DNA from: Arthrobacter cryoconiti
GTDB lineage: Bacteria; Actinomycetota; Actinomycetes; Actinomycetales; Micrococcaceae
Assembly (NCBI RefSeq): GCF_020905375.1
Contig: NZ_JAJJBU010000008.1
Location: 1 to 51,964 of the forward strand
DNA length: 51,964 nucleotides
Reading direction: 5' to 3'
The notes beneath the pieces are model-generated. The model saw only the letters and a program-made list of their open reading frames with translations, was not told the origin of the DNA and did not search any database. This document shows positions 12,579-42,680 of this stretch, piece by piece (the stretch's first letter is position 1; each line of letters begins with the position of its first letter). Position numbers and translations under genes: made by a program.

Positions 12579-12833
12579 GTGCCTGAGTCCAAATCGCGTC
12601 GTCGTCCTACTAAAGGACCAGCACAGACGCCCTCGTCAAAGACTCAGAAACCCAATGCACCATGGTTTCTGCCCGTCATGGTCACCTTGATGCTGCTCGG
12701 CCTATTTTGGATCATCGTGTATTACATTTCAGACGGCGCCTACCCGATCCCCAACATTAAAAACTGGAACATCGGCATCGGTTTCGCAATCGCACTCTCG
12801 GGCTTCATGATGACTACCCGGTGGCACAGCTAA
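12579..12833 (+). CDS. crgA: Cell division protein CrgA
   Basis: An 84-aa protein with a basic, disordered N-terminus (PESKSRRRPTKGP) and two membrane helices (about 30-50 and 60-78, with the short linker SDGAYPIPNIKNWNIGIG), the usual CrgA (UPF0233) layout. It is a small divisome scaffold that contacts FtsZ, FtsI and FtsQ in mycobacteria. Start is GTG preceded by AAGGAG. It is divergent from the sortase operon and only 3 nt from the convergent repeat-protein gene. Confidence 0.95.
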   Translation: MPESKSRRRPTKGPAQTPSSKTQKPNAPWFLPVMVTLMLLGLFWIIVYYISDGAYPIPNIKNWNIGIGFAIALSGFMMTTRWHS

Positions 12834-12836
12834 GGC

Positions 12837-13130: not shown

Positions 13131-13447
13131 TGTTCGGCCCTTCCTTTCACAGTGCCCCCTGTGCTTCCACAAAGCGCCTTAGGCTAACGAGCCGGCAGAC
13201 CACCCGCGCTCCTTACCTCTGAGTCTAAGCATTTTAGCCATTTAGTGACAGGTTACTGTGAGGGGAATTTAGTCCCCACGTGGCTTCCGTCAAACCACTT
13301 GTGTGCTGGTACGGGGCGCGGCAGCGAACTAGGACGACGGCGGGCGCGTTAGCTGCAGCGTTGGCGAGGAGTGCGACGGGGGCGACAGGGCGCAACGGCG
13401 ACAGAACACAGAAGACAGTCGCGCTGACGAAAGTGCGCATCTAAGGA
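13131..13447. other. Intergenic stretch, no supported gene
   Basis: About 320 bases upstream of the repeat-protein gene and downstream of the hydrolase. It should hold the repeat-protein promoter. A 68-residue - strand frame exists but lacks a ribosome binding site and family resemblance. This is the left edge of the accessory island. Confidence 0.4.
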
Positions 13448-14350: not shown

Positions 14351-14518
14351 GTGTCAGGGTGTCCCTTTCAAATCAGAAATTTCGAGCGAGGGATTACTGG
14401 CCGTAAGCATAGCCTTGTTCACCTGTCCAGGAGACTAGATTCGCAGATATTCGGTACTATCTAGCTGTTGGGATGAGGCACATCTTCCGCGGTCGAACCA
14501 TGTACAGTATGTTGCGTT

Positions 14519-15547: not shown

Positions 15548-15603
15548 GTGAACATGCTGGCACAGACGCCGTATGAGAGCCTGGTCTCCCTCCTCGCGAA
15601 TAT

Positions 15604-16641
15604 TTAGGGGATGAGAACGACCTTTCCGAACACCGTTTTTGATTCAGCGAGCGTCATCGCACGGTTTGCTTCTCGCAGCGGTATGCGTGCTGCGACGTTT
15701 GCCGTGATCTTCCCATCAACGAGCAGGCCAAGCACGGTGGTTAGATCCGCGGAGAGGTTCCCTCGAAATGCTTTGGCATGCAGAGTCTTACCTTCCCAGA
15801 AGTTGAAGAACAACGCTCGGCGGCGGTTGGGCAACAGAGTCCAAAGCATGAGACGAAAATAGAAGCTAAGAAAGCTCAGATTGATATTGTTTGTTTCATC
15901 ACGCTGGGCCGCAGTGCCGTAGGCCACGAGCGTGCCACCGGGCGAAAGCAGGTTGAAGGAGCGTTTGAAGCTCTCCTCGCCGAGGTGGTCGAAGACGGCA
16001 TCGACGCCACCGGGGGCGATCTGACGAACCTGAGCTCCAAGGTCTGGATCGTTGTAGTCAATCGGTTCCACTCCCAATTCACGTAGCTGCGCGTGATACC
16101 GGGGCGACGCGGTCCCGATCACGTGTACGCCAGCATTGCGGGCCAGTTGAACCAGAGTGCTTCCTACGCCGCCGTTGGCTCCATGGACTAAAATAGTGTC
16201 GCCAGATTTCACGCGGGCTTTACGGTGCAGCATCTGCCATGCGGTGACCCCGTTGACTACAACGGACTCGGCCTCAGCGGCATCTAGTTCATCGGGGACG
16301 AGGACTACGTCACGCGCATCGACGAGGACATGGGTACTCCAGCCGCCGGTCTTGATGACCGCTGCGACACGGCGGCCGGCAAGTGCTTCGTCGCATCCGT
16401 TCCCTGTTGCGGTGACTATGCCGACGATGTCATAGCCAGGGACGAACGGAAACTTCGGCTGCCCTGGATACCGGTTGCGACGCATTTGTTGTTCTGCAAA
16501 TGAGACACCGGTTGCCAACATCTTGATGAGGACTTGGCCAGGTGCGGGGCAAGGCATGGGTAGCTGGCGAACAATCAGACCATCAGGCAAAACGACGCCG
16601 GGCAGCACGACGTCGGTCAGTGTGGTTGTTGGACTAGTCAT
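15604..16641 (-). CDS. Zinc-independent MDR oxidoreductase, quinone reductase-like
   Basis: A 345-aa medium-chain dehydrogenase/reductase. The N-terminal GroES-like domain includes VPGYDIVGIV. The Rossmann domain has the NAD(P)H-binding motif HGANGGVGSTLVQLARNAG followed by VIGTAS. Cysteine ligands for catalytic or structural zinc are not seen, which points to the NADPH:quinone reductase/enoyl reductase group. It likely reduces quinones or enones in the cytosol. It is divergent from the TetR gene at 16845, so regulation by that protein is likely. Confidence 0.88.
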   Translation of the reverse strand: MTSPTTTLTDVVLPGVVLPDGLIVRQLPMPCPAPGQVLIKMLATGVSFAEQQMRRNRYPGQPKFPFVPGYDIVGIVTATGNGCDEALAGRRVAAVIKTGGWSTHVLVDARDVVLVPDELDAAEAESVVVNGVTAWQMLHRKARVKSGDTILVHGANGGVGSTLVQLARNAGVHVIGTASPRYHAQLRELGVEPIDYNDPDLGAQVRQIAPGGVDAVFDHLGEESFKRSFNLLSPGGTLVAYGTAAQRDETNNINLSFLSFYFRLMLWTLLPNRRRALFFNFWEGKTLHAKAFRGNLSADLTTVLGLLVDGKITANVAARIPLREANRAMTLAESKTVFGKVVLIP

Positions 16642-16844
16642 GAAAAAGGCCTTTCACTGAATGGAGAATATTCGAACGCTCTTTTGGTGTGGTGGTTGGC
16701 GTTAAGCGACGTGGACATGACGATCAACACCAATTATGAACAACGTTCTCGATTTTGATCAGTGTATACGCTTCGAAAACGTCTGAGCAAGAACACCGTT
16801 CACGATTACGTCTTGTGTTCTCGCCGGATGATATATTGAAGTGC

Positions 16845-17570
16845 ATGAATACCTCCGGAAATGCACGGGCAAGAGTCCGCGCAACACTGACACGCGAGAT
16901 CCTTGACGTGGCTCGCCACCAATTAGCCGCTGTCGGAGCTAACGCATTATCTCTTCGTGCAGTAGCTCAAGAAATGGAAATGGTGCCTTCCGGGCTCTAC
17001 CGCTACTTCGCAAGCCGGGACGTCCTGCTTACAGCATTGATCATCGAGGCATACGACGCTTTGGGTGACCAAGCAGAACGCGCTCTCCTAGATATCCCTG
17101 CGGATGACTATCGCAACCGGTGGCTCACCGTTTGCGGCTCAGTGCGAGACTGGGCCCTGGCGCACCCTCAAGAATTCATCCTGATCTACGGCTCTCCCGT
17201 TACGAACTATCGCGCACCAGCGGACACCATTGCACCAGCTGCCCGGGTGTACACACTTTTGCTAAACATCGTCAACGACAGCGTTGTTGCCGGACGATTT
17301 GAGTCGCCCGCCACTGAACCTGCAATGGCTGAACCAGCAATGGATAGCGGCCTTACCGAAGATGCGGTGGCTCTGCTGTCTTCTCTCAACATTTCTAGCC
17401 TCAGCCCTGCCACTCTCTTACGCGCTATCACCGCCTGGTCCCATGTGCTCGGTGCAATTAGTCAGGAACTATTCGGCCATCTCGATGGTGCATTCCGCGA
17501 AAAGGGCCATCTATTCGAGTACACCGCAGAGCTCATGGTTGACTTCGTCGGGCTGAGAGCCGAAAACTGA
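16845..17570 (+). CDS. TetR/AcrR family transcriptional regulator
   Basis: A 241-aa regulator. The N-terminal helix-turn-helix (about residues 10-57) reads LTREILDVARHQLAAVG, then LSLRAVAQEMEMVPSGLYRYFASRDVLL, typical of TetR. The C-terminal ligand-binding domain has a long helical make-up. The start is placed at the ATG giving MNTSGNARARVR; the frame extends 30 codons upstream but that part is not family-like. It is divergent from the MDR oxidoreductase, which is probably its target. Confidence 0.9.
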   Translation: MNTSGNARARVRATLTREILDVARHQLAAVGANALSLRAVAQEMEMVPSGLYRYFASRDVLLTALIIEAYDALGDQAERALLDIPADDYRNRWLTVCGSVRDWALAHPQEFILIYGSPVTNYRAPADTIAPAARVYTLLLNIVNDSVVAGRFESPATEPAMAEPAMDSGLTEDAVALLSSLNISSLSPATLLRAITAWSHVLGAISQELFGHLDGAFREKGHLFEYTAELMVDFVGLRAEN

Positions 17571-17603
17571 CCAAGTACGTTTAGCAGTTGCGGACCAAGG
17601 TCT

Positions 17604-18176
17604 TCATTCTTGCCGCACTTTTCTACCCGCGCGCCACATCCGAGCGCGGGACAGTATCTCGGAGACGACGTCGGTCTTCGCTTCCGCGTAGTAATTCATA
17701 TCTGTCCACTTTTGCGCAGCAAGACCCTTTTTTACTGTTGTGTAGAGGGTTCGGTCCATTTCATCCACTCGAAGCCAATCCCTAAAGTCCAGATAGTTTG
17801 CAACGGCAGGGTTATCCGGGGAAACCACGTGAATATGAACATCCTTTTCGGGCGTTCTCATCAGGACGTGGCCGGCTTCCCGAACACGGAGCACGAAACC
17901 CGCTGACTCAAGCTTGGCCAAGTATGAATCTTCATCGCCAACGTCTGCAACTGTCAGCAAAACATCGATAATCGGCTTCGCTGACAGGCCTGGGACTGAA
18001 GTCGAGCCAATATGCTCAACCGACAGCGCGACATCTCCAACCGCATCCCTGATTGCCAAATCAAGCTCGTCGAAACGTGCGGACCATTTTCGGTCGTATT
18101 CCACAATAACAATTTGACGCTCTTCACGACCGCCTATCAAAACGGCGTCTAGATGCTCATCGGTTTCAGGGATCAT
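17604..18176 (-). CDS. GrpB family protein (UPF0157, nucleotidyltransferase fold)
   Basis: A 190-aa protein with the GrpB/UPF0157 signature: IVEYDRKWSARFDEL near residue 25 and VEHIGSTSVPGLSAKPIIDVLL near 57. GSTSVPGL...IDV corresponds to the GS...D motif of the nucleotidyltransferase fold. It has no signal peptide. The biochemical role is not firmly known in most bacteria. It is monocistronic within the accessory island and convergent with the TetR gene. Confidence 0.88.
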   Translation of the reverse strand: MIPETDEHLDAVLIGGREERQIVIVEYDRKWSARFDELDLAIRDAVGDVALSVEHIGSTSVPGLSAKPIIDVLLTVADVGDEDSYLAKLESAGFVLRVREAGHVLMRTPEKDVHIHVVSPDNPAVANYLDFRDWLRVDEMDRTLYTTVKKGLAAQKWTDMNYYAEAKTDVVSEILSRARMWRAGRKVRQE

Positions 18177-18306
18177 CGACTAATCATGTCATCGTCTCAA
18201 CCAGAGCTTGCGCCTGCGGATCCGTGAAGTCATCCAGTTGATGGCGCGAAAAGCAGACGCTGCTTAGTTCTTCTGGCGCGTGTCTTTGATCTGTTGTTGT
18301 CTCGCC

Positions 18307-18885
18307 TCAGGCGACAATAGTCACCTTTGTCCGCATCGCGTGGAGTGCATTCGTCCATGCCACGACCGCGTCAAGCGTTCCGGCAAGGCTTTGTTCTTGG
18401 TGCGCACGCGGGGTGAACGGGCCTCCGAAGCCGCTCCAGTCTTCGCGGGAGCTGAGAGCTACCGCTGGCCCGACGTCGGCCATTCGCAAAGAAGCGGAGA
18501 CAGGCCTGAGCGCCTCAACGGCCCGGATTCCACCGTCCACGCCGTACGAAACGAAGCCGACGACCTTGTCGTTCCACTGCGCCCACACCCGATCGAGGGC
18601 GTTCTTAAGCTTTCCGGGGAAGGAGTGGTTATATTCCGGAGTGACAATCACGTATCCATCGAACCGGGCGACGACCCCCGCCCACACCTTGGTGTGTTCT
18701 TCGGTGTATCGGCCAACTGCCGGGGGGATTGCCTCGTCAATCTCAGGCAGGGCATAGTCGGCGAGATCGATCAGCTCGTAGTCCGCGTCACCGCGGGCGG
18801 TTGCCTGCGCAAGAACCCAATGCGCGACGGCTTCTCCTGCCCGGCCGGACCGGGTGCTACTGAGAATGACGGCTATTTTCACCAT
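18307..18885 (-). CDS. NADPH-dependent FMN reductase
   Basis: A 192-aa flavodoxin-like enzyme. The phosphate-binding loop is VILSSTRSGRAGEAVAHW at the N-terminus, and TPEYNHSFPGKLKNALD (about 88-104) is the hallmark flavin-binding motif of the NADPH-dependent FMN/azo/quinone reductases. It reduces FMN or quinones in the cytosol with NAD(P)H. The ATG has AAGGAG at good spacing. Neighbouring flavin enzymes could use its product, which is inference. Confidence 0.92.
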   Translation of the reverse strand: MVKIAVILSSTRSGRAGEAVAHWVLAQATARGDADYELIDLADYALPEIDEAIPPAVGRYTEEHTKVWAGVVARFDGYVIVTPEYNHSFPGKLKNALDRVWAQWNDKVVGFVSYGVDGGIRAVEALRPVSASLRMADVGPAVALSSREDWSGFGGPFTPRAHQEQSLAGTLDAVVAWTNALHAMRTKVTIVA

Positions 18886-18917
18886 GACGATCCACTCCTT
18901 GATGTGGTTGGCTTCTG

Positions 18918-19044
18918 TTAGAGATTTGAAATAAACGTGGCGATAACTGCGAAGACTTCATTCGCCTTCACACGGGTGGGGACGTGGCTTGCGCCTTCGA
19001 TGCCCGCATACTCAGAATGTTGAAATGCTGCTGCGTAACTGCAC
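18918..19044 (-). pseudogene. C-terminal relic of an alpha/beta hydrolase
   Basis: Just upstream of the FMN reductase a - strand frame reads HSEYAGIEGASHVP followed by RVKANEVFAVIATFISNL and a stop. This looks like the final strand, catalytic histidine (GASH) and last helix of an alpha/beta hydrolase. No start or remaining hydrolase body is found upstream; the frame meets a stop after roughly 40 codons. It is probably the stub of a deleted gene. The identification rests on a short stretch. Confidence 0.45.
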
Positions 19045-19119
19045 CCAAATTAGGGAATGACTACGGAATCCTCGTCGCCGGCCCAGCGTGGTGCGCCGGG
19101 TCAGTGCTGCAGCGATAGC

Positions 19120-20286
19120 TCAGTGCACGTCAATCGCTTCGGTTGCGAGACTCACGGACTGGAAGAAGTTCACGAGCGGGCGGGGTGACCCTTTCTGGAA
19201 CAACAGGTCCAGGCTTTGTGCGGAATCGTTGGCAGATTCAGCGGAACGTGGAAACAGTTCGGCTTCGTAGGCAAGCAGTGCCGCTTCGGTGTCACCCGGG
19301 TGAGCGGCGATTGCCAGAGCCAGCTCAGCGGCGTCGAACATCGCAAGGTTCGCGCCTTCTCCGGCAAACGGCGACATGACATGTGCGGCGTCACCGAGGA
19401 GCGTAACACCAGGTACACGATCCCAATGAAGCCCAATTGGCAGCGCGTGAATACGGCGAGGTGTGAGAGGAGTATCAGCGTTGGCAACAAAACCGCGCAG
19501 ACTTTCGTCCCAGCCGTCAAGCAAGCTCAAAACCGTCTTTTTAGCCCGGGCGTCGTCCGTGAAGTCAACGGTGTCGACCCATTCTTCCGGGCACCGCAAG
19601 CCGACGTAGACATGCAGGGTCCCATCGGTTTCAAGATGACCCAGTATGCCGGTGGTGTCCTTGAATGCGAACAACATGCCCGAGCCCATTGCGGCAGCTT
19701 CGAGGGTGTGCTTGTGGACGCCGTCGTGAAGATCGGCTTCGAGAAAGGAGACGCCCACGTATTCCGGGCGTGCCGCACTGAGCAGCGGACGGACCTTAGA
19801 CCATGCGCCGTCGGCACCAATAAGAAGGTTAGTGGTGATGGTCTCTCCATTCGCAAACACGACCTCATGCAAGTTTGATTGAGAAGGTACGCTCCGTACC
19901 GCGACGACTTTATAGCCCCAGTGGATGGCGCCATCGGGGAGAGAATCTATGAGCATGTTACGCAAGTCGCCGCGATCGACCTCGGGGCGAGCGAAACTGC
20001 CGTCATCGCGTTCGTCAATGTACACCGTGCCGAGGTGGTCAAGGACACGAGTGGCCTCGCCGCCCTCATGAATGATGCTGGTGAATTCCTCCATGAGTTC
20101 GGCGGCTTGGATCGCCTTCTGGCCGTTGTAGTCATGGATATCCAGCATGCCTCCCTGAACACGAGACTCACGGTGGGGCTCGAGTTCAAAAATAGCGGAC
20201 TCGATACCCTTGGTGTGGAGAACTCTGGCGGTTGTAAGGCCGCCCAGACCGCCTCCGATAATGGCGATGGGGTAGTGCTTAGTCAT
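19120..20286 (-). CDS. FAD-dependent aromatic-type monooxygenase
   Basis: A 388-aa flavoprotein of the PHBH/TetX-like group. It has the dinucleotide-binding motif AIIGGGLGGLTTARVL at the N-terminus, the DG motif in LIGADGAWSKVRP, and the GD motif GDAAHVMSPFAGEGANLAM. It hydroxylates an aromatic or polycyclic compound using NAD(P)H and oxygen. TetX-type tetracycline inactivation is possible but unproven. The start is the ATG giving MTKHYPIAII, preceded by AGGAG; the longer frame runs back into the gap. It follows the TetR gene by 34 nt, so the two likely form a regulator-enzyme operon. Confidence 0.9.
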   Translation of the reverse strand: MTKHYPIAIIGGGLGGLTTARVLHTKGIESAIFELEPHRESRVQGGMLDIHDYNGQKAIQAAELMEEFTSIIHEGGEATRVLDHLGTVYIDERDDGSFARPEVDRGDLRNMLIDSLPDGAIHWGYKVVAVRSVPSQSNLHEVVFANGETITTNLLIGADGAWSKVRPLLSAARPEYVGVSFLEADLHDGVHKHTLEAAAMGSGMLFAFKDTTGILGHLETDGTLHVYVGLRCPEEWVDTVDFTDDARAKKTVLSLLDGWDESLRGFVANADTPLTPRRIHALPIGLHWDRVPGVTLLGDAAHVMSPFAGEGANLAMFDAAELALAIAAHPGDTEAALLAYEAELFPRSAESANDSAQSLDLLFQKGSPRPLVNFFQSVSLATEAIDVH

Positions 20287-20320
20287 GGTTGCCGCTCCTG
20301 GAAATTCAATGATCGATTGG

Positions 20321-21022
20321 TTAGGACTCATAGCTGGTGGAGGAAGGTACAGCTGTGGCAGTGATGCCTGCGATGAGTGCCCGGATGGCCCAACTGGAAC
20401 GTTGTGCTGGAGTGCCGCTAAGCACTGCATCTAAGTGCATGGATAAATGCGGAGTATTTTCTGAAGACGCGTTGCGAACTGCACCTGCGAAGCTGTTTGC
20501 ATCGACATGTTCGGTGACGGCAACAACGTCTGACGGCGCTGGGGCGCTGTGCTCGGCAGCACTGGCAGTCACGAACTGCACTAGCAAGTCCACACCCCAT
20601 GCAGCGCGAGCTGGCTCGACACCTCCCTCTAAAAGAAGGCCCAGTACGGCGTCGAACAGGGACATCGAGTTGGTCCCAGTTGGCCGGAGAATGAGAGCAG
20701 ATCTGGCGAGCCCGGGATACGTAAACAAAATATCCGAATAGCTGCCCAGGAGCCCTTCGATTCGATCGGCCCAGCCAGCTCCATCGGAACTGGGCAGTGA
20801 ACCAAGCAGTTCATCCAGGACCGCGGCGTGCAACTCAGCCGTGTTGGCCACATAAACGTACAAGGATGCGGGACCGGTGTCCAGCGCCTGTGCCACCCTG
20901 CGCATCGTGGCCTTTTGCAAGCCCTCAGCGCGCATGATCTCGATCGTGGTTTCTATTATCCACTTGCGAGACAAGGCTGGCTTGGCCGGGCGGTCTCTGC
21001 GGCTTTGTACTGCGTTTCTCAT
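20321..21022 (-). CDS. TetR/AcrR regulator with TetR-type C-terminal domain
   Basis: A 233-aa regulator. The N-terminal helix-turn-helix (about 18-65) reads LSRKWIIETTIEIMRAEG, then ATMRRVAQALDTGPASLYVYVANTAELH. The C-terminal part (about 85-205) resembles the TetR/ActR-type ligand domain. It lies directly upstream of, and in line with, the FAD monooxygenase, which it probably represses. Two palindromic GAACAWGTTC sites 13-40 bases before its start codon fit autoregulation. Confidence 0.9.
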   Translation of the reverse strand: MRNAVQSRRDRPAKPALSRKWIIETTIEIMRAEGLQKATMRRVAQALDTGPASLYVYVANTAELHAAVLDELLGSLPSSDGAGWADRIEGLLGSYSDILFTYPGLARSALILRPTGTNSMSLFDAVLGLLLEGGVEPARAAWGVDLLVQFVTASAAEHSAPAPSDVVAVTEHVDANSFAGAVRNASSENTPHLSMHLDAVLSGTPAQRSSWAIRALIAGITATAVPSSTSYES

Positions 21023-21034
21023 ATTTCGATCGTA

Positions 21035-21061
21035 ACGAACATGTTCGTAAAGAACAAGTTC
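21035..21061. promoter_or_regulatory. Tandem TetR-type operators
   Basis: Two inverted repeats lie just upstream of the TetR gene start at 21022. The first is a 14-bp perfect palindrome ACGAACATGTTCGT (21035-21048); the second is GAACAAGTTC (21052-21061). Both share GAAC-N2-GTTC and their centres are 15 bp apart. This is the expected form and place of a TetR-family operator overlapping the promoter of the regulator-monooxygenase operon. Confidence 0.7.
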
Positions 21062-21571
21062 GACACAAAATTGTTTCCGTTCAAAGAAACCAGACGGACT
21101 GGTCCAACCAGAACTTCCGGGGCGGTGGTTCCCATGACGCTACCTATTGCCAACACTTCACGCCTCGACGAACCCGTCCGATGTGGTCGAAACGCAATGT
21201 TGGTCTCGTCAACGCACTGATCAATAACGGACAGATACGTGAGTGAGCCTTCACTGAGATCTCACTCACGAAGGCTGACGACGCTGGGAACGCGCTTATG
21301 CAGGCACTGCGACAATCGACATGCCTGCCGACCTGCAGGCCACCCTCGACGCATCGGCTACCCGTCAAACCTGACCTCCGCCTCGGGAACGACCATAGTA
21401 CGTCGGCCCAGGAAGCAAGCGGGGATAAAGCGACGCCAAGTCCTACTGCCGCATTGAATGATCCCCACATATCCTCGATGTATTCCGTAAAGGTCATACA
21501 TAACCAAGATCCTGGCGCAGTGTTCCCGGACACCGTCAAAACCCCAAAAAAACGTTCACCGACTTTTTTCA
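21062..21571. other. Intergenic stretch with no confident gene
   Basis: About 510 bases between the TetR promoter and the second FAD monooxygenase. Reading frames exist but none reads as an intact family. On the + strand MPADLQATLDASATR at about 21320 resembles the start of a YdeI/DUF1905-like protein but stops after 17 codons. I treat the area as decayed sequence. Confidence 0.4.
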
Positions 21572-22786
21572 CTATTTCACAAGCTGCCCCTGTTCCGTCG
21601 TGTGGCCGCGGCCTCCCGACACCTTCGCCACCAACAACTGAAGTATCCGCCACTGAGCAACGCGCATGATAAGCGCGTTCAACCGGATGCCGATTTTGCC
21701 CTTGGGCGCGATCATGTCTACTCGGCCGGGAATAAGCTTTTGGGCGGCGACCACGCGCGGACGCATCGTTTGTTCGTAGTTCGCGAGAATTTCCGACCGG
21801 GCGCGGTCGTTGCCGAGACTGGACCCGTCGCCAAGAGCGTCCGCAAGGGCGGCGGCTCCGTGGAGGCCGAGCGCCGTGCCGAGGCCGCTCAACGGGCTCG
21901 CGCACCAGGCGGCGTCGCCGAGAAGCACAACGCGGCCGTTGAACCAAGTTGGCATATGTACTTGGTCGAAGGTGTCGAGGGCGAAGTCAGGTGCGGTTCG
22001 AGCGGCGTCGAGGAATTCGCGCGTACGCCAGCTCATTCCGGCGAACTCCCGTTCTAGCAGTGCGATGCGGGCCTGGTGGTCAGTACGCGCCGGGAGTTCG
22101 TCGGCTGCGAATGTCAGGCCGATCTGCTGGTGACCGGGGAGCCCTGGCCGGGCAGAGACTAGACGGCGACCCGGGGCATTGTGGTCGAGGGCCCAGCCGT
22201 TCAGCGATGGTGTGGACGGTTTTTCGGCCAGGGTGTACCAGGCATGCGCGAGCCCGAGCGGGCGACGGAAGTCGGCTTCGGGTCCAAAGCGCAGCGCCCG
22301 CACATGGGAATGGGCTCCGTCCGCACCAACGACCACGTCGAACGCCTCGGTGTTTCCGGAGCGGAAACGCACCGACACACCCGCATCCACGTCGCGTAAC
22401 TCGTCGACGGTGTCAGCAAACGTGTAGTGGACGCCCGCGTCCACAGCGGCACCGTGGAGCAGTCGCGCAAGGTCGGTGCGCAGCAGTTCCTCCTCCGACA
22501 CGAGCCCCTGGCCACCGAACGCGTCAACAGGCATTTCTGCGAGTCGCCGCCCCCGCGCGTCGATCCAGGCAATACCGCGCTGCGGAACGAGGACATCGAG
22601 TGCGGCACCGAGCAGGCCAAGGCGATCGAGAACCTCGCGCGAGCCGCCGCGTAAGTCCACGGTCTGGCCACCAGTGCGAAGTGCTGGTGCGATCTCGACA
22701 ACAGTGACCGACCAACCGGCACGGCCGAGCAGGACGGCAAGTGTGTCGCCGGCGATGCCGGCTCCGACGATAAGAATCTTGGGCAT
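21572..22786 (-). CDS. FAD-dependent monooxygenase
   Basis: A 404-aa flavoprotein, a second member of the PHBH-like family in this island. The FAD-binding motif is ILIVGAGIAGDTLAVLLGRAGW at the N-terminus, the DG motif is VVGADGAHSHVR (about 158-169), and the GD motif is LLGDAAWCASPLSGLGTALGL (about 287-307). It hydroxylates or epoxidises an unknown small molecule. The ATG follows GGAG. It is divergent from the TetR gene at 22886 across a 99-bp control region, which suggests substrate-responsive control. Confidence 0.9.
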   Translation of the reverse strand: MPKILIVGAGIAGDTLAVLLGRAGWSVTVVEIAPALRTGGQTVDLRGGSREVLDRLGLLGAALDVLVPQRGIAWIDARGRRLAEMPVDAFGGQGLVSEEELLRTDLARLLHGAAVDAGVHYTFADTVDELRDVDAGVSVRFRSGNTEAFDVVVGADGAHSHVRALRFGPEADFRRPLGLAHAWYTLAEKPSTPSLNGWALDHNAPGRRLVSARPGLPGHQQIGLTFAADELPARTDHQARIALLEREFAGMSWRTREFLDAARTAPDFALDTFDQVHMPTWFNGRVVLLGDAAWCASPLSGLGTALGLHGAAALADALGDGSSLGNDRARSEILANYEQTMRPRVVAAQKLIPGRVDMIAPKGKIGIRLNALIMRVAQWRILQLLVAKVSGGRGHTTEQGQLVK

Positions 22787-22803
22787 TTTTTCTCCAGATT
22801 AGC

Positions 22804-22869
22804 TAACGCTACAAAAGTTGTATTTATGACACTACATCTTAACGCTACAAATGATGCAATTGCGTGCAA
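22804..22869. promoter_or_regulatory. Candidate operators in the monooxygenase/TetR divergent promoter
   Basis: The 99-bp gap between the divergent genes holds a 12-bp exact direct repeat TAACGCTACAAA (22804-22815 and 22840-22851). The first copy overlaps an inverted repeat TACAA-N3-TTGTA (22810-22822). A further small palindrome TTGCGTGCAA is at 22860-22869. These are candidate binding sites for the TetR protein at 22886. Confidence 0.5.
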
Positions 22870-22885
22870 CAATTGATGCAATAGA

Positions 22886-23467
22886 ATGAGACCCATGCCA
22901 GAACACTCCGGTACAGATAGGCCCGCGGGCCGCACTGCTCGCACGCGAGAAGCCGTTCACCGTGCCGTCGGCGAGCTGCTCGCCGATCCTATGGCTGAGG
23001 TTACAATGGCCACCGTTGCTGCTCGGTCCGGTGTGCACCGAACCACCCTCTATCGGCGTTGGCGGACTGCCGAGTCGATCGTGCTCGACTTTGCCGTGGA
23101 ACGCGTCACTGAGGAATCGCCCGTGCCGGCGACCGGCGATCTACGAGCAGACCTCACCGAGTACGTGCACCGCCTTCTCACGACTCTGCAGCGCACTGGC
23201 ACGAGCAGTTTGCTGCAGGCGCTCCTCGCCGCGGCCGCGCAGACGAATGACGCCGTCGAAATCGGGGACATCATGGAGCCACGTGTTCGCCAGTTTCAGG
23301 CGATGCTAGATGCCGCGGAAGTGAGGCGGCTCGACGGATCGCAGCTCGTCGACCTCGTGCTCGCCCCTTCCTACCTCTGGGCGCAGTTCGGGGCGCCGCT
23401 GGACCCTGATGCGGGTACGCAGCGGATCGTCGACGCCGTGCTCGCGGTTGCCCAATGGAAACACTAA
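22886..23467 (+). CDS. TetR/AcrR family transcriptional regulator
   Basis: A 193-aa regulator. The N-terminal helix-turn-helix (about 18-63) reads ARTREAVHRAVGELLAD, then VTMATVAARSGVHRTTLYRRWRTAESIV. The C-terminal domain fits TetR members with the TetR_C_11-like fold. The ATG at 22886 or the one three codons later (MPEHSGT) could be the start. It faces the FAD monooxygenase divergently and probably controls it. Confidence 0.9.
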   Translation: MRPMPEHSGTDRPAGRTARTREAVHRAVGELLADPMAEVTMATVAARSGVHRTTLYRRWRTAESIVLDFAVERVTEESPVPATGDLRADLTEYVHRLLTTLQRTGTSSLLQALLAAAAQTNDAVEIGDIMEPRVRQFQAMLDAAEVRRLDGSQLVDLVLAPSYLWAQFGAPLDPDAGTQRIVDAVLAVAQWKH

Positions 23468-23563
23468 AACGAACTGACAACATTCCTGCAGCACCTCGGG
23501 CGTCTCGCAAGCCCTTCCGCTTACAGGCGGCGCTTAATTCTCTGCCCGGAGTAGGGTTGTGCC

Positions 23564-23866
23564 ATGACATTTGCTAACGCGGGAACACTCGGTGTTGTCC
23601 CCGGCAAGCGAGATGAACTGGTCGCTCATCTGACCAAGCGCAGTGACACCCTCAAACAGATCGGTTGCCTGGCGTATGAGGTGGGTGTCAGCGACGACGA
23701 CCCCGACACGGTATTTGTGATGGAACTCTGGGAGAGCGCCGAAGCGCATCAATCTTCTCTCACTTTGCCAGAGGTCCAAGCAGCTATAGCGGCCGCACGG
23801 CCGCTTCTGTCCGGCGCCTTTGGCGGATTTCGCTTCAATGTTGTCGGATCACCACTCCGAGACTAA
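23564..23866 (+). CDS. ABM-domain monooxygenase (YgiN-like)
   Basis: A 100-aa single-domain protein of the antibiotic-biosynthesis monooxygenase (dimeric alpha/beta barrel) family. The family pattern is visible as VVPGKRDELVAHL, CLAYEVGVSDDDPDTVFVMELWES, and AEAHQSSLTLPEVQAAI. Such cofactor-free enzymes oxidise quinols or polyketide-like substrates. It lies with flavin monooxygenases and could act on the same class of substrate. Confidence 0.88.
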   Translation: MTFANAGTLGVVPGKRDELVAHLTKRSDTLKQIGCLAYEVGVSDDDPDTVFVMELWESAEAHQSSLTLPEVQAAIAAARPLLSGAFGGFRFNVVGSPLRD

Positions 23867-23959
23867 AACACGGCACTCCAACCGCGCGCTAAACAATCCA
23901 CCGCCGGAACTCCTCGGGCATCCCATTCACCATTCCGCATGCGGGACTGCCGCCATGTA

Positions 23960-24220
23960 TTAGTGACCGTAGTGATATCGGCATCCGGCAATGCGAATTT
24001 CAGCAATATCAATTTTGTAAACGAGGCGATGTTCGTCGGTGATTCGTCGTGACCAGTAGCCATGAAAACCGTGCTTCAGGGGTTCCGGCTTTCCGATGCC
24101 TTCATTTCCGTTTCGTGCGATATCCCGCAGTAGGATGTTGATGCGTTTGAGGACCTTACGATCCTGTGTCTGCCACCACTCATAGTCATCCCATGCGCAC
24201 TCGTCCCAGACCAACTTCAT
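23960..24220 (-). CDS. yoeB: Txe/YoeB family toxin (mRNA interferase)
   Basis: An 86-aa toxin matching YoeB over its length. It shows MKLVWDECAWDDYEWWQTQDRK at the N-terminus, GIGKPEPLKH (catalytic glutamate region), WSRRITDEHRLVYKI (catalytic arginine) and a C-terminal CRYHYGH with the conserved His/Tyr. It cleaves ribosome-bound mRNA when free. Its ATG overlaps the antitoxin stop by 4 nt. All expected residues are present, so the toxin appears functional. Confidence 0.93.
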   Translation of the reverse strand: MKLVWDECAWDDYEWWQTQDRKVLKRINILLRDIARNGNEGIGKPEPLKHGFHGYWSRRITDEHRLVYKIDIAEIRIAGCRYHYGH

Positions 24221-24468
24221 TCTGTGATGTCGTGCTCGACGCCCTTACCAGATTCGAGCCGCTCTATTGCACCGAGGAGTCGCCTGGCATTCGTAGGGGA
24301 TTTCAACAGATACGCGGTTTCTTTCAACGACTCATAATCATCTAGCGAAACGATGACCACTGGCTCGTGACCCGCGCGAGTGATAATGACTTCCTCGCGG
24401 TCATCGACCACAGCGGAAAGCGTCGCAGCGTAATGTGCCCGGGACTCTGAGTAAGTCATTGTGCGCAT
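24217..24468 (-). CDS. yefM: Phd/YefM family antitoxin
   Basis: An 83-aa antitoxin. The N-terminal DNA-binding part reads MTYSESRAHYAATLSAVVDDREEVIITRAG, followed by PVVIVSLDDYESLKETAYLLKS, the standard Phd/YefM core. The C-terminal tail wraps the toxin. It represses its own promoter, usually with YoeB as co-repressor. Start may be 24468 (MRTMTYS) or the ATG three codons later. It is upstream of and coupled to yoeB. Confidence 0.93.
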   Translation of the reverse strand: MRTMTYSESRAHYAATLSAVVDDREEVIITRAGHEPVVIVSLDDYESLKETAYLLKSPTNARRLLGAIERLESGKGVEHDITE

Positions 24469-24561
24469 GATGTTCCCTTCTTGACGTACAACTTATTGTA
24501 CGGTGAGGATTGATGTCCCGCAAGAGGTTCGGCGAAATCAGGCGGTCGTCGCACCAGGGGG

Positions 24562-25060
24562 TTACTCTGGTTGCGATAGTAGCTGTTCCTTGGCTTGTCC
24601 CGGGTGAATCGACACAAGACCCTTGCGCTGCCGGTCGTTGAGTTCGGTGGCGACTTCCAGTGGTCGCTTCGGTGAATGCTCGGACAAATCCGTGCCAACA
24701 CAACAGCCATCAAATAGAGTTTAATTACACCGTCCAACTTTCGGGGACCAGTCCAGGAGCCCGTTGGTATCCTCGTTGGTTCGACGCTGCCAGGGCGAAT
24801 GCAGTTCGTAGAAGTGATGTCCATTTGTGTTACCAGGGTGATTTTCTTGTGATTGTCAGCTCGGTTCCCGGGTCCCAGGTCAGCGACTTGCGCAGGTGCT
24901 TCCGCAACGCGTTGATGGTCCTCACCAGTCCCTCCCGGACGGCGACGACACCGTGATCGTTGGGCAGATGGACCAGCGTCGTGTACCTGCTTTGCCGTTT
25001 CACCAACGTTGCGATCGCCGAGCGGCAATTGGACCCCTGCACCAGATCGGCCAGTTCAAC
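24562..25060 (-). pseudogene. IS30-family transposase relic (C-terminal half, frameshifted)
   Basis: Read on the - strand, three successive frames together give the second half of an IS30-type transposase. The pieces are CRSAIATLVKRQSRYTTLVHLPNDHG to LTWDPGTEL, then HSPWQRRTNEDTNGLL, then GTDLSEHSPKRPLEVATELNDRQRK ending at a TAA at 24562-24564. The TWDxGTE aspartate and the TNEDTNG glutamate of the DDE triad are still visible. A roughly 40-bp insertion and frameshifts separate the pieces, and the N-terminal DNA-binding half is missing. The element cannot be active. It abuts the truncated TnsA-like gene. Confidence 0.85.
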
Positions 25061-25707
25061 GTCATCGAACTTGCTGATCTTAGGCCGACACCCGCGCGAA
25101 CCATCCTTACAAGGTCGGCAAAGACCAGCGGCTCGATACATTCGTTGATGGCGCGCATGGCCGTCTGTCGATCGAAATGCGTCGACACTCGCGCGCAGGC
25201 GAGCAGCTTGATATTCCGGAGGACAGTCTCCGAGGTTCCTGACCACACCTCATAGTCCCAGCCGTGTTGGCTGCAAACATCGCCGGGCGAATCAAAAACT
25301 GCTGCCGTTTCGGGATCGTCGAGCCGCGACTTCGGCTTCACGTCGACGATGAGGATTCGTCCAAGGTTCGAGCGGACCATGACATCAGGAACGTGGCGAT
25401 GGTCCCTACCACCAAAACGGCCAGACAACTCAAACCGCTGCGTGGCAATCCAATCAACGGTTGGAAGAAGGTCTGCCGTCCACAGATAGTCGAGTTTCAG
25501 CAGACTCTCATAGATCAAGAAGGACCTGGTGGTCGCAGACCAGAACAAGCCAGGATAAATCCTCTGGCCCCTGTAGGTGGGTGATTTTCTGACGGGAAGC
25601 CCGTGCAGGACAGCAGCCACATCAACGTCTTCGAGCCGTGCGCTAACCGTGCTTCTGTCGAATGAGAGGTGCTGAACCCTAACGTCTTGACCCCGAACAC
25701 CGGCCAT
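25000..25707 (-). pseudogene. TnsA-like transposase endonuclease, C-terminus disrupted by IS30 relic
   Basis: A 235-aa frame whose first 150-200 residues match actinobacterial TnsA-like heteromeric transposase endonuclease subunits. Restriction-fold residues are present: the glutamate in YESLLKLDYLW (about 67), the aspartate in HVPDVMVR (about 107) and the lysine in ILIVDVKPKSRL (about 122). TnsA cuts the 5' strands at transposon ends with a TnsB partner. No tnsB or tnsC follows; the last residues (from about WPIWCRG) are read out of IS30 sequence in another frame. The gene is therefore probably truncated and is a relic of a Tn7-like element. Its ATG starts just left of the DnaA-box cluster. 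Confidence 0.75.
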
Positions 25708-25794
25708 ACCTCAAGTCTCCGCCCCATGTGGTGAAACTGGGACAAGTGACAAATAGTTTGAGTTTCTACACCTTCAAGGGTTCCCTGATTCCTG

Positions 25795-26159
25795 TTGTCC
25801 ACAGATTGTCCCCAAAGTTATCCACGGAATCCGACCGTCAAAACCTTAGTTACAAAAGTTATCCACGGACGTTGACAACTTCTTTGAACTATCCACAGGT
25901 GGTCTTCGAATGGCCACCGAACAGCAGTTGTTCACAAAGTTATCCACAGGAGTGGATAACTTTGGCTGGTTTTCCTCCCGAATACGGGAAAACTACCGCG
26001 TGGAAGTAATCCACAGCTGTGGAATTACATGTGTGTAACTTATACCCAATGTGTGTAACCCTGTGGAGAACAGTCCGTTCGACGAATCCTCACTTGTTCG
26101 AACTACAGCTCTGTAAGTTATGCCCATGTGTGGACAGTCCTGTGGATAACTGTGGATAC
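25795..26159. other. Dense DnaA-box cluster, distant from dnaA
   Basis: In 365 bp I count about twelve 9-mers within one mismatch of TTATCCACA or TTGTCCACA. On the + strand they start at 25795 (TTGTCCACA, exact), 25806, 25818, 25859, 25889, 25928, 25940 (exact) and 26007. On the - strand they are at 25951, 26129, 26141 (exact) and 26151. CCAAAGTTATCCAC at 25812-25825 recurs as an exact inverted copy at 25952-25965. CCACAGCTGTGG at 26011-26022 is a perfect palindrome. ATGTGTGTAAC occurs twice, 20 bp apart (26029, 26049). The region is non-coding and contains the flavin reductase promoter. It could be an additional origin, a DnaA titration site, or a displaced origin. Confidence 0.8.
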
Positions 26160-26175
26160 GTGGGAACATTGAGGC

Positions 26176-26727
26176 ATGGAATTGACCGAACCGCTTGATT
26201 TTTCGCCTGTTTCCCCACAGGCACCCACCCAAGAGCAAATAGACGAATATCGACGTCTAAGCGCTGAACAGGCAGCGGGAGTTGGAATTGTGAGTACGGT
26301 CTGGCGTGGCAGAGACTACGCTGCTACCGTCTCTGCTTTTCTATCGGTCTCCTACGACCCTCCGACGATCCTGGTGAGCCTCTACGAGGGCTCCCGGATC
26401 GCACAGGCAGTGTCAGAATCGGGCACCTGGTCCCTGACGTTGCTCACCGCAGATCAAAAGCGTGACGCGAATTGGCTTGCTAGCCCAGGCACGCCAATTG
26501 AAGGTCTGCTCAGCCAAGTGAAGTTCAAACGCGGTGGGGCCACCGGATGTGCCATCGTCAGTGGTGCCTTAGCGTATTTTGAGGCATCGACCACAAACAT
26601 CTACCCGCAGGAAACCCACTTGCTCATCGTGGGAAACGTCGTAGGGATGGGCAGCGAGTCCATATGGACACCGAACACATCCCCGCTGCTGCACTACGGT
26701 GGCGACTACCGCCGGCTCAAGCCCTAG
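26176..26727 (+). CDS. Flavin reductase family protein (FMN-binding split barrel)
   Basis: A 183-aa protein of the flavin reductase-like domain family. After a short variable N-terminus come AAGVGIVSTVWRGRDYAATVSAFLSVSYDPP, the typical start of the split-barrel fold, then LVSLYEGSRIAQAVSESGTWSLTLL, and HLLIVGNVVGM near the C-terminus. It reduces FMN with NAD(P)H or binds flavin for a partner oxygenase. It is monocistronic; the upstream region is the DnaA-box cluster, so DnaA could influence its transcription. Confidence 0.9.
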   Translation: MELTEPLDFSPVSPQAPTQEQIDEYRRLSAEQAAGVGIVSTVWRGRDYAATVSAFLSVSYDPPTILVSLYEGSRIAQAVSESGTWSLTLLTADQKRDANWLASPGTPIEGLLSQVKFKRGGATGCAIVSGALAYFEASTTNIYPQETHLLIVGNVVGMGSESIWTPNTSPLLHYGGDYRRLKP

Positions 26728-26738
26728 CCATGATAGGT

Positions 26739-27602
26739 CTAAGAAAAGGTATAAGCCGGGAAAGTGGAAACTTTGTAGAGAGTCAGTCCTACCAAAAGAA
26801 GTACGACGGCGGCCATCGCACCCCACTGGATTACGTTACGTCTGGCTGTAGCTGGTGCATAGGCAATAGCGAGCGTGCAGAGCGCTCCGGCAATCAGCCC
26901 GCCTAGGTGCGCCTGCCAAGCGATGTTGGGGATGAAAAAGCCAAGGGCTGCATTAATCAACAGCAACACGATAATTTGACGAAGGTCTCCACCACGCTTT
27001 TTCTGCACCACGAATAAGGCGCCAAATAGGCCAAATACGGCCCCCGATGCCCCGACGACAACTGTATCTACGGGGGAAATCAGCAGTACGCCCACAGAGC
27101 CTGCCATTGCACTGATGAGGTACACCGCCAAGAACCGGACCCGTCCAAAGGCCGGTTCCAAAGCGTTCCCCAGAATCCACAGAGCGTACATGTTAAAAGC
27201 AATGTGCGTGATGTTTGTTGAATGCAAGAAGGCCGACGTCACCATGCGCCAAGGCTCGGTTTTCGTCGTGAACGGCGCATACGCAAAGTTCTCGAAGATG
27301 AATCTGTTAGGGATAGCCCATTCCACGATGAACAACGCCACACATATGGCCATCATGGTGATAGTGATCACTGGACGACCGGTGCGAACTACACCACCGA
27401 AGATGGTCCGTCGGCCAGGGACGGTCCTTGCCGCTTCCTTCACACAGTCCACACACTGGATGCCGACAGCGGCACTTCTTTGGCAGTCGGGGCATGTGGG
27501 ACGCCCACACCGTTGGCAACTCACATAGGAGACGCGATCAGGATGTCGTGGACACACAGGTGCTCCCACTGGGGTGCCGGAAACGGGGTATGCAGAACTC
27601 AT
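26739..27602 (-). CDS. Rhomboid family intramembrane serine protease with zinc-finger N-terminus
   Basis: A 287-aa protein. The N-terminal 60 residues hold a cysteine/histidine-rich B-box-like zinc module (CPRHPDRVSYVSCQRCGRP, then CPDCQ and CVDC). Six to seven membrane helices follow. The catalytic serine is in VVGASGAVFGLFGALF and the histidine in WQAHLGGLIAGALC, the rhomboid dyad; HIAFNMYALWILG is the HxxxN motif. It cleaves membrane proteins within the bilayer. I prefer the ATG at MSSAYPVSG over a TTG sixteen codons upstream. Confidence 0.92.
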   Translation of the reverse strand: MSSAYPVSGTPVGAPVCPRHPDRVSYVSCQRCGRPTCPDCQRSAAVGIQCVDCVKEAARTVPGRRTIFGGVVRTGRPVITITMMAICVALFIVEWAIPNRFIFENFAYAPFTTKTEPWRMVTSAFLHSTNITHIAFNMYALWILGNALEPAFGRVRFLAVYLISAMAGSVGVLLISPVDTVVVGASGAVFGLFGALFVVQKKRGGDLRQIIVLLLINAALGFFIPNIAWQAHLGGLIAGALCTLAIAYAPATARRNVIQWGAMAAVVLLLVGLTLYKVSTFPAYTFS

Positions 27603-27634
27603 GGAGGCGATCCTAGGCTGATGTTCTATTACAT

Positions 27635-27672
27635 GTTCTGGCCGACTCAACCGAGGTTGGGCCGGCCAGAAC
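27635..27672 (-). terminator. Long hairpin after the cyclophilin gene
   Basis: Arms GTTCTGGCCG (27635-27644) and CGGCCAGAAC (27663-27672) are exactly complementary, with further inner pairing. It sits between the cyclophilin stop and the rhomboid start on the - strand. No clear T-run follows, so it may attenuate rather than fully terminate. Confidence 0.5.
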
Positions 27673-27687
27673 TATTGCTAATTGGAG

Positions 27688-28230
27688 TTAGAGCTTCTCG
27701 ATCGTGACGGAGTTGATAACGACGTCTTCGCGTGGTTTGTCACCAGGACCGGTGGAAACGCCTTCGATGGCGTCAACTACAGCCTTTGAATCCGCATCGA
27801 TTACCTCACCGAAGATGGTGTGCTTACCCTGCAGCCATCCGGTGGGGATGGTGGTGATGAAGAACTGTGAACCGTTGGTGCCGCGGCCACCCTGGATACC
27901 GGCGTTGGCCATGGCCAGCTTGTACGGCTCATTGAAGTTCAGATCAGGGTTGATTTCGTCGTCGAATTGGTAGCCGGGTCCGCCAACTCCTCGGCCTAGA
28001 GGATCTCCGGCCTGGATCATGAAGTCTTTAATGATGCGGTGGAAGATAGTGCCGTTGTACAGCGGTGCGTTGGACTTTTCTCCGCTGCCGGGGTGTGTCC
28101 ATTCGATCTCACCGGTGGCAAGGCCGACGAAGTTGGCTACGGTCTTGGGCGCGTGATTACCAAAAAGGTTCACCACGATATCCCCGAGGCTAGTGCTGAT
28201 AGTTGCTTTTGCGGTTGGGATAGCAGTCAT
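27688..28230 (-). CDS. ppiA: Peptidyl-prolyl cis-trans isomerase, cyclophilin type
   Basis: A 180-aa cytoplasmic cyclophilin without signal peptide. Core motifs are TSLGDIVVNLFGNHAPKTVANFVGLA, YNGTIFHRIIKDFMIQAGDPLG (catalytic arginine and Phe), GGRGTNGSQFFITT and LQGKHTIFGEV. It accelerates proline isomerisation during folding. It matches the position of ppiA near gyrA in other actinobacteria. It is upstream of the rhomboid gene on the same strand. Confidence 0.95.
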   Translation of the reverse strand: MTAIPTAKATISTSLGDIVVNLFGNHAPKTVANFVGLATGEIEWTHPGSGEKSNAPLYNGTIFHRIIKDFMIQAGDPLGRGVGGPGYQFDDEINPDLNFNEPYKLAMANAGIQGGRGTNGSQFFITTIPTGWLQGKHTIFGEVIDADSKAVVDAIEGVSTGPGDKPREDVVINSVTIEKL

Positions 28231-40486: not shown

Positions 40487-40689
40487 GGAAGGGTGCCGCC
40501 TTTCATTTTAGAAATTTGTCAGTGGTGCCTGAGGAAGGCTTCCATCTGAAACTACATGCTTCCAGACAGCTTAGCTCTTTGGCTAGCTGGATCTGACATT
40601 GTCATTTGGGTCTTGCCTGGCGGTGATGGGGAAACAGAAGATGTTCTTTGAAAAGAAGAATTATTGGTGTTCGTAGTGTTAATAAGTCC
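40487..40689. other. dnaN upstream region
   Basis: About 200 bases before dnaN, part of the dnaA-dnaN gap. No gene is seen. It should carry the dnaN promoter, reading left. No clear DnaA box was found here. Confidence 0.4.
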
Positions 40690-40910
40690 TGTGGATACTG
40701 TGGATAACCCTGCTGGTTCGCGTGGTTGCGGGGATCTTGCCTGTGCACAGTATGTGAGGCTGTCCCGTAGCTGCCTGTGTGGACCGGTGGAGAACTTTTT
40801 CGACAAAATACTGCGTCCACAGGAAGGTAGGGGGTTATCCGCAGGTAGGAGGTGGTTGTGCACTTAACTGTCCACAGCTTTATCCACAGCTGTTAATTCT
40901 CAAAATTTTT
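40690..40910. other. Likely oriC: DnaA boxes and AT-rich unwinding region in the dnaA-dnaN gap
   Basis: DnaA-box-like 9-mers lie at 40690 (-, GTATCCACA), 40699 (-, exact TTATCCACA), 40835 (+, TTATCCGCA), 40868 (+, CTGTCCACA) and 40880 (+, exact). An A/T-rich stretch follows at 40893-40910 (TTAATTCTCAAAATTTTT), a candidate unwinding element next to the dnaA stop. Position between dnaA and dnaN is the usual actinobacterial origin. Fewer boxes are seen than in Streptomyces or in the 25.8 kb cluster. Confidence 0.75.
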
Positions 40911-40922
40911 CCACCCTGGCGT

Positions 40923-42521: not shown

Positions 42522-42680
42522 TCATCCACAGGTTTATTCACAACCCGTGGATAACTTGCCACGGGCCTAGCCTAAAGGATGATTTGTTCAGAAGATAGCG
42601 AGGAAATCGGCTTGTGGATAAATCTCACATCCAAGCAGACTTTTGACGTGTGTCAACAGGTTGTCCACGGGTTATCCACT
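42522..42680. promoter_or_regulatory. DnaA boxes in the dnaA upstream region
   Basis: Boxes within one mismatch of consensus lie at 42522 (+, TCATCCACA), 42534 (+, TTATTCACA), 42546 (-, TTATCCACG), 42613 (-, exact TTATCCACA), 42661 (+, TTGTCCACG) and 42672 (+, TTATCCACT). They sit between the divergent dnaA and rpmH genes, fitting DnaA autoregulation and possibly a second origin half. Confidence 0.75.

What the first reader, a model, noticed from the sequence alone, without database searches (positions are those of the whole stretch)
25795..26159. A third, dense DnaA-box cluster 14.5 kb from the dnaA-dnaN origin
About twelve DnaA boxes (three exact) lie in 365 bp of non-coding DNA, more than I find in either gap beside dnaA. 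They come with long inverted and direct repeats. Such density is typical of an origin or of a titration/reactivation locus such as datA or DARS in E. coli. Gene polarity favours an origin beside dnaA, so this cluster may be an auxiliary origin, a displaced origin, or a DnaA sink. It sits between a truncated TnsA-like gene and the flavin reductase, so it might also have been carried in.
Basis: partly seen in the sequence, partly recalled or inferred. Interest (0 to 1): 0.8.

Follow-up and report, generated by a model that had tools for sequence, protein, structure and literature searches.

The report
Conserved DnaA-binding cluster beside crgA
Fourteen kilobases from the replication origin this bacterium carries a dense, ancient cluster of binding sites for the replication-starter protein DnaA; related sites lie at the same address in most actinobacteria sampled, so it is probably a control station for replication rather than a stray or imported piece of DNA.

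Summary
The cluster is real: 10 DnaA boxes with at most one mismatch (two exact, not three) in 365 bp of non-coding DNA, against 0.06 expected. It did not arrive with the TnsA relic: all 21 same-genus relatives examined keep it at fixed positions, 17 without a TnsA-like gene in the stretch fetched. All 35 named Micrococcaceae examined have it 3' of rhomboid. Sampling the class by crgA shows the ancestral address: 79 of 88 genomes have at least one box within 1 kb downstream of crgA (reversed-box control 4 of 88). A DnaA site mapped in M. tuberculosis and M. smegmatis (Rv0010c-Rv0011c; Hicks 2020) has that address; its authors saw no obvious counterpart in other species. The origin is most likely dnaN-dnaA, which alone carries the tandem double box plus DnaA-trios, though local GC skew was inconclusive. 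The cluster has head-to-head/tandem triplets, the layout but not the spacing of E. coli DARS, plus a palindrome. Best reading: a conserved origin-proximal DnaA-control locus, expanded in Micrococcaceae. Whether it reactivates DnaA or stores it is open; nothing was tested in this organism.

The parts
25795..26159 (.). DnaA-box cluster: 10 boxes <=1 mismatch, 17 <=2
25806..25826 (+). Left tandem pair (weak TTGTCCCCA + TTATCCACG, starts 12 bp apart); in about half of the aligned relatives a facing box follows 10 bp on (12 of 21 aligned <=1 mismatch), making > > <; that facing box is absent in the window
25859..25867 (+). DnaA box TTATCCACG; <=1 mismatch in 17 of 22 aligned
25889..25897 (+). DnaA box CTATCCACA; <=1 mismatch in 17 of 22 aligned
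25928..25959 (.). Central triplet > > < (25928+, 25940+, 25951-); box 25940 exact in 22 of 22, box 25928 weak (2 mismatches)
26006..26028 (.). Near-palindrome GTAATCCACAG/CTGTGGAATTAC around box 26007 (<=1 mismatch in 22 of 22)
26025..26038 (.). Inverted repeat TTACA-N4-TGTAA, core of the module found beside crgA in many families
26040..26070 (.). Triplet > < < (26040+, 26050-, 26062-); the first two boxes are weak in the window (2 mismatches)
26118..26159 (.). Right group > < < < (26118+, 26129-, 26141- exact, 26151-); the first two have 2 mismatches
26176..26727 (+). Flavin reductase; beside the cluster in 21 of 21 genus relatives and 0 of 19 other loci fetched
26739..27650 (-). Rhomboid protease, syntenic marker
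27688..28230 (-). Cyclophilin PPIase, syntenic marker
12579..12833 (+). crgA; ancestral left neighbour, here separated from the cluster by about 13 kb of accessory genes
25000..25707 (-). TnsA-like ORF (Pfam match below the curated cut-off), incidental neighbour
40487..40922 (.). dnaN-dnaA spacer, most likely oriC: double tandem box 40690/40699 with trio-like TAGTGTTAATAA at 40674-40685
42522..42680 (.). dnaA-rpmH box group, also with > > < geometry

Best explanation
The cluster is the Micrococcaceae version of an ancestral actinobacterial DnaA-control locus that sits downstream of crgA, here 14-15 kb from oriC, the same address as the mycobacterial Rv0010c-Rv0011c DnaA site. DnaA binds repeated triplets (two tandem boxes facing a third head-to-head) and builds a complex that is not an origin but changes how much active DnaA reaches oriC. 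Shown here: the boxes, their conserved order and spacing, and the synteny. Shown by others in mycobacteria: DnaA binding at the syntenic site, and longer cells when it is mutated. Inferred: binding in this organism, and the direction of the effect. I put about 0.45 on an activating, DARS-like role (mycobacterial site mutants resemble dnaA mutants, whose long cells the authors liken to hypomorphs; head-to-head core) and about 0.35 on a datA-like store that is doubled soon after initiation.
For: Density. Box positions fixed in the genus: box 25940 exact in 22 of 22; columns of 20 listed box positions 53% invariant against 17% of the other columns in the cluster (the positions were listed after seeing the alignment). 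Share of invariant columns 33%, against 31% in the dnaN-dnaA spacer and 16% in dnaA-rpmH. Named Micrococcaceae: 35 of 35 have >=3 boxes per 400 bp in the 3' flank of rhomboid; reversed box 0 of 35; opposite flank 0 of 34 examined. Class sample of crgA 3' flanks: 79 of 88 genomes and 29 of 33 families with a box, 180 boxes against 5 reversed-box hits; 1 kb upstream of crgA 4 of 89 loci. Module hits: crgA, rhomboid or PPIase beside 30 of 30 class loci fetched; a syntenic marker beside 29 of 30 family loci fetched. crgA and rhomboid converge in 61 of the 62 class loci where both were seen, which argues against a promoter role there. DnaA binding in mycobacteria; longer cells of site mutants.
Against: No binding or phenotype data for this genus. 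9 of 88 class genomes show no box at the address, and one of 19 non-genus relatives fetched (L077) shows none in the whole stretch. The strict module patterns hit only 49 of 148 family and 51 of 393 class genomes; the window's own genome does not match the class pattern. In Arthrobacter the cluster precedes flavin reductase and the divergent TnsA-like ORF, so a promoter role is possible there. The triplet geometry is shared with dnaA-rpmH (27 of 53 close pairs head-to-head), so it is not unique. Hicks et al. saw no change in initiation rate in their dnaA mutants. Local GC skew does not exclude an origin here.
Confidence: 0.8

Rival explanations
1. Pure titration site (datA/D78-like): many boxes soak up DnaA soon after the origin is copied and so delay re-initiation; no nucleotide exchange.
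For: High box number, and a place copied soon after initiation. Two papers state that DnaA-box clusters in S. coelicolor and B. subtilis repress untimely initiation (passages). E. coli datA also holds a head-to-head pair.
Against: Most of the class sample has only 1-4 boxes at the address, few for a sink; fixed spacing and the palindrome suggest a shaped complex. Mycobacterial site mutants resemble dnaA mutants, whose long cells the authors liken to hypomorphs.
Confidence: 0.35
2. Auxiliary or displaced replication origin.
For: In 10 of 21 relatives the cumulative GC-skew minimum of the 29-34 kb examined lies within 2.5 kb of the cluster, against 8 of 21 for dnaN-dnaA and 3 of 21 for neither. 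Box number exceeds that of either dnaA gap.
Against: In the window the minimum lies at 38-40 kb. In 21 of 21 relatives dnaN-dnaA holds the trio + double-box element (trio score 10-11 of 12), against 6-9 at the cluster. The genes identified between cluster and dnaA, flavin reductase apart, are on dnaA's strand and would be head-on if replication began at the cluster. The skew is confounded by gene strand, and 4-fold-site skew was uninformative. The mycobacterial counterpart is listed apart from oriC.
Confidence: 0.06
3. DnaA-regulated promoter region of flavin reductase or of the TnsA-like gene.
For: In the genus the boxes end shortly (16 bp in the window) before the flavin reductase start. In the presumed mycobacterial locus checked (L294) the site precedes a bPH gene.
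Against: Boxes persist where flavin reductase is absent and where crgA and rhomboid converge. In M. tuberculosis neither flanking gene changed expression in dnaA mutants.
Confidence: 0.08
4. The palindrome is the primary element, read by an unidentified dimeric protein for chromosome organisation or segregation near the origin; DnaA boxes are secondary.
For: TNACA-N4-TGTNA in 32 of 88 crgA flanks, in 31 within 60 bp of a box; 0 of 88 in the reversed flanks; 50 mononucleotide shuffles of 89 loci gave mean 0.16, maximum 2.
Against: 56 of 88 lack the palindrome while 79 of 88 have a box; DnaA itself binds the mycobacterial site.
Confidence: 0.06

Closest known systems
Mycobacterial DnaA site Rv0010c-Rv0011c (Hicks et al. 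2020, PMC7738170)
   Same: Same side of crgA (Rv0011c = CrgA is recalled); palindromic box pair; near dnaA. Four box clusters of this genome (dnaN-dnaA, dnaA-rpmH, crgA-linked, upstream of dnaB) match four of the five DnaA regions of the paper; the fifth was not looked for.
   Different: Loci of family f22 (presumed mycobacterial, 11 genomes) have 1-3 boxes; the window has 10. In the one f22 locus checked a bPH gene stands where others have rhomboid. The paper found no obvious correspondence in other species.
E. coli DARS1/DARS2
   Same: Core of one box facing two tandem boxes (> < <).
   Different: Box starts 14 and 12 bp apart in DARS1 against mostly 10-11 and 12-13 here; IHF and Fis sites were not looked for; near the origin; more boxes. 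I did not identify the DARS2 core in the stretch fetched.
E. coli datA
   Same: Non-coding DnaA-box cluster with a head-to-head pair.
   Different: datA depends on IHF; no such site was tested here.
S. coelicolor DnaA-box clusters (D78, H69, H24; Smulczyk-Krawczyszyn 2006; names recalled, paper not held)
   Same: Clusters outside oriC in an actinomycete; cited as repressing untimely initiation.
   Different: Whether any lies beside crgA could not be checked.
oriC of the same chromosome (dnaN-dnaA)
   Same: DnaA boxes, similar conservation.
   Different: At <=1 mismatch 41 of 41 close pairs in 34 spacers are tandem (at <=2 mismatches 101 tandem, 8 head-to-head, 1 tail-to-tail), and it has DnaA-trios; the cluster has head-to-head pairs and no trios.

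Membership tests
Mycobacterial Rv0010c-Rv0011c-type DnaA site | Lies 3' of crgA with PPIase beyond | tested here: met
   Relatives and class sample; in the window itself crgA is 13 kb off because of an insertion
Mycobacterial Rv0010c-Rv0011c-type DnaA site | Palindromic pair of DnaA boxes | tested here: met
   Pair at 25940/25951
Mycobacterial Rv0010c-Rv0011c-type DnaA site | Bound by DnaA in vivo | not testable with these tools
   ChIP needed
DARS | Box I opposed to boxes II and III | tested here: met
   Triplets at 25928-25959, 26040-26070, 26118-26149, counting boxes with 2 mismatches
DARS | Box spacing as in DARS1 | tested here: not met
   Mostly 10-11/12-13 bp here against 14/12 in DARS1
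DARS | Promotes ADP release from DnaA | not testable with these tools
   Biochemistry needed
datA | IHF-dependent ATP hydrolysis by DnaA | not testable with these tools
   Biochemistry needed
datA | Box cluster close to oriC | tested here: met
   14-16 kb in 21 relatives
Bacterial oriC (basal unwinding system) | Tandem double box plus DnaA-trios | tested here: not met
   Trio score 6-9 of 12 at the cluster, 10-11 at dnaN-dnaA, 21 relatives
Bacterial oriC (basal unwinding system) | GC-skew switch | tested here: inconclusive
   Local minimum near the cluster in 10 of 21, near dnaN-dnaA in 8 of 21
S. coelicolor D78/H69/H24 clusters | Chromosomal address | not tested
   Paper not held

The most novel reading that the evidence does not exclude
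An actinobacteria-wide DnaA-control element at one ancestral address, combining DARS-like triplets with a palindrome read by an unknown second protein: it would be the Gram-positive counterpart of DARS, evolved separately, elaborated in Micrococcaceae, and would explain why mutations at the mycobacterial site mimic dnaA mutations.
Probability: 0.3. Interest if true: 0.9.

Novelty: new variant of a known kind. Interest (0 to 1): 0.74.

Why it matters
How actinobacteria restrain or recycle DnaA is poorly known (recalled: they lack Hda and SeqA). A site reported in mycobacteria as without obvious correspondence elsewhere turns out to have syntenic counterparts in most of the class genomes sampled, with its most elaborate forms seen here in Micrococcaceae, where it could be deleted and tested in laboratory strains. 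It lies beside crgA, a cell-division gene, near the origin.

Tried and rejected
Four-fold-site GC skew per gene: swamped by codon bias. Local cumulative skew: split between the two places. Plasmid search for the cluster: no match. MtrA as reader of the palindrome: its published motif is a direct repeat, not this inverted repeat (passages). Bidirectional terminator: the palindrome has a 5-bp stem or no loop (by eye). The inverted box pair at G000:C34:111214 is a terminator-like hairpin after an ORF that looks like seryl-tRNA synthetase (name by eye). L382, around a minor 3-box group, looks phage-like by eye and was not pursued. Literature: ten searches; in the listings I saw no paper that links crgA to a DnaA cluster outside mycobacteria. 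Most listed papers were not opened, including the S. albus paper, and the library lacks most subscription journals.

Rows dropped or not examined: of 22 same-genus relatives, G009 gave no PPIase match and was not examined; L213 (3-bp flank) dropped, and the opposite flanks of L172, L200 and L214 were not scanned there; L292 (short flank) dropped; L345, a second copy of the genome of L264, is counted (89) and removed (88). The 35 named Micrococcaceae were assigned from record titles (L161, titled Sporosarcina, counted in by its locus) and overlap the 21 genus relatives: 11 contigs have identical lengths. Of 127 class genomes with crgA I examined 90 loci (89 genomes): 30 chosen by the tool (best scores) and 60 by me to spread over families, after I had seen the pattern results.

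Full report
1. Observation. The stretch 25708-26175 holds, at 25795-26159, ten DnaA boxes with at most one mismatch to TTATCCACA (25795, 25818, 25859, 25889, 25940, 25951, 26007, 26062, 26141, 26151) and seven more with two mismatches. Two are exact. The genome has 609 such boxes in 3.6 Mb, so 0.06 are expected and ten have a Poisson probability of 2e-19. The dnaA gaps hold four and five. Around the 36 exact boxes outside the window and one further inverted pair (37 stretches) the best count is six boxes, between rplI and dnaB, then three.

2. Is it old? The locus was fetched from 21 same-genus genomes and 19 others, 13 of the family and 6 of the order; one more genus genome, G009, gave no PPIase match. 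All 21 genus members have 6 to 12 boxes in 400 bp, nearly all at the same distances from the flavin reductase start, with L041 and L044 shifted. The 13 other family members have 3 to 8, the 6 order members 3, 3, 2, 1, 1 and 0. In the alignment of 22, box 25940 is exact in 22, boxes 26007 and 26141 have at most one mismatch in 22, and 25818 in 21; the stretch left of the cluster (25720-25789) is poorly conserved (mean majority 0.49). A TnsA-like gene shows up in the fetched stretch in four of the 21 (L047, L056, L057, L059) and in one of the 19 others, so the cluster did not depend on it.

3. How wide? A scan of named GTDB genomes for the rhomboid neighbour gave 80 loci. Of 79 with enough flank, 35 of 35 Micrococcaceae had three or more boxes in 400 bp, mean 6.6; reversed box 0 of 35; opposite flank 0 of 34 examined. 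The other 44, from Cellulomonas, Promicromonospora, Knoellia, Kineosporia and others, had at least one box in every case, mean best count 2.0, but only 6 had three or more. Inspection showed a shared module, TNACA-N4-TGTNA or a close variant with boxes beside it. A strict pattern for it hit 49 of 148 family genomes and a related one 51 of 393 class genomes, with the pattern read backwards hitting none in either; most genomes therefore do not match the strict forms, and the window's own genome does not match the second. Of 30 class loci fetched, all have crgA, rhomboid or PPIase beside the hit, crgA itself in 27; of 30 family loci, 29 have at least one syntenic marker.

4. Sampling by crgA. crgA (Pfam CrgA) was found in 127 of 128 class genomes. 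I examined 90 loci, of which 88 are distinct genomes with at least 500 bp of 3' flank, from 33 unnamed families. Of these 79 have a DnaA box within 1 kb downstream of crgA, 29 have three or more in 400 bp, and the total is 180 boxes against 5 reversed-box hits in 4 genomes. The 1 kb upstream of crgA has a box in 4 of 89 loci. Nine of 88 have none; four of 33 families have none in the sample. The palindrome is present in 32 of 88, in 31 of them within 60 bp of a box; in reversed flanks 0 of 88. crgA and rhomboid converge in 61 of the 62 loci where both were seen.

5. What is known there. Hicks et al. 2020 (abstract, sections 7, 9 and 12 and passages read) mapped M. tuberculosis DnaA by in vitro pull-down and M. 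smegmatis DnaA by ChIP-seq. [quoted passage not shown] Rv0011c is CrgA (recalled). Mutations recur in a palindrome of two box-like sequences there; three constructed variants had longer cells, like dnaA mutants. The authors left the function open and saw no obvious correspondence in other species. Genomes of family f22 in my sample are presumed mycobacterial; in the one locus checked (L294) the order is crgA, a bPH-domain gene, PPIase. Loci of genus g63 show AATCACAC-like palindromes, a facing pair of box-like sequences and TGTGGATAAC. Four box clusters of the present genome coincide with four of the paper's five regions.

6. Probably not the origin. In the genus the dnaN-dnaA spacer carries a double tandem box preceded by the trio-like TAGTGTTAATAA in 19 of 21 relatives (near-variants in the other two); the cluster has nothing comparable. 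A Kocuria study places the putative oriC between dnaA and dnaN, with trios (passages). In 34 dnaN-dnaA spacers all 41 close pairs at <=1 mismatch are tandem (at <=2 mismatches, 8 of 110 are head-to-head); in the genus crgA clusters 32 of 54 are head-to-head, in the family set 10 of 23, and class-wide 15 of 43. Local skew does not decide: in the window the minimum is at 38-40 kb, but in relatives it falls near the cluster in 10 of 21, near dnaN-dnaA in 8 of 21 and elsewhere in 3. This is the main result against my reading.

7. Mechanism. Counting weak boxes, the window's boxes form triplets, > > < on the left half and > < < on the right half, so the cluster is roughly mirror-symmetric. E. coli DARS1 has the same order and orientation, with starts 14 and 12 bp apart (reviews, passages); here they are mostly 10-11 and 12-13. 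The dnaA-rpmH gap shares the geometry, so it is not a unique mark. I take the locus to be a DnaA-control station. An activating role is slightly favoured because mycobacterial site mutants elongate like dnaA mutants, which the authors compare with hypomorphs; a sink is nearly as likely, given the number of boxes and the nearness to oriC.

8. Verdict. Real, dense and conserved in sequence and place; the counterpart of a little-studied mycobacterial site, here in an expanded form. New, as far as the searches named above show, are the class-wide conservation, the module with its palindrome, and the expansion. Function in this organism is untested.

Noticed in passing
G000:C57:35180-35411 (L378 378-609): Six DnaA boxes between rplI and dnaB, matching the mycobacterial DnaA site upstream of dnaB.
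   Followed up: partly
window 12834-25707: Accessory genes (TetR, FAD oxidoreductases, GrpB, alpha/beta hydrolase, TnsA-like) stand between crgA and the cluster; the gap varies in size and content among relatives, so this looks like an insertion hotspot near the origin.
   Followed up: partly
window 24456-25707: TnsA-like ORF followed in another frame by an overlapping ORF without a Pfam match; possibly a broken gene.
   Followed up: no
   Followed up: no
window 26004-26043: Forty consecutive bases each conserved in at least 90% of 22 aligned genus sequences, more than the boxes alone require; reader of the palindrome unknown.
   Followed up: partly
L039-L059 joined with L079-L099: Local GC-skew minimum sits near the crgA cluster in 10 of 21 relatives and near dnaN-dnaA in 8; unexplained.
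   Followed up: partly
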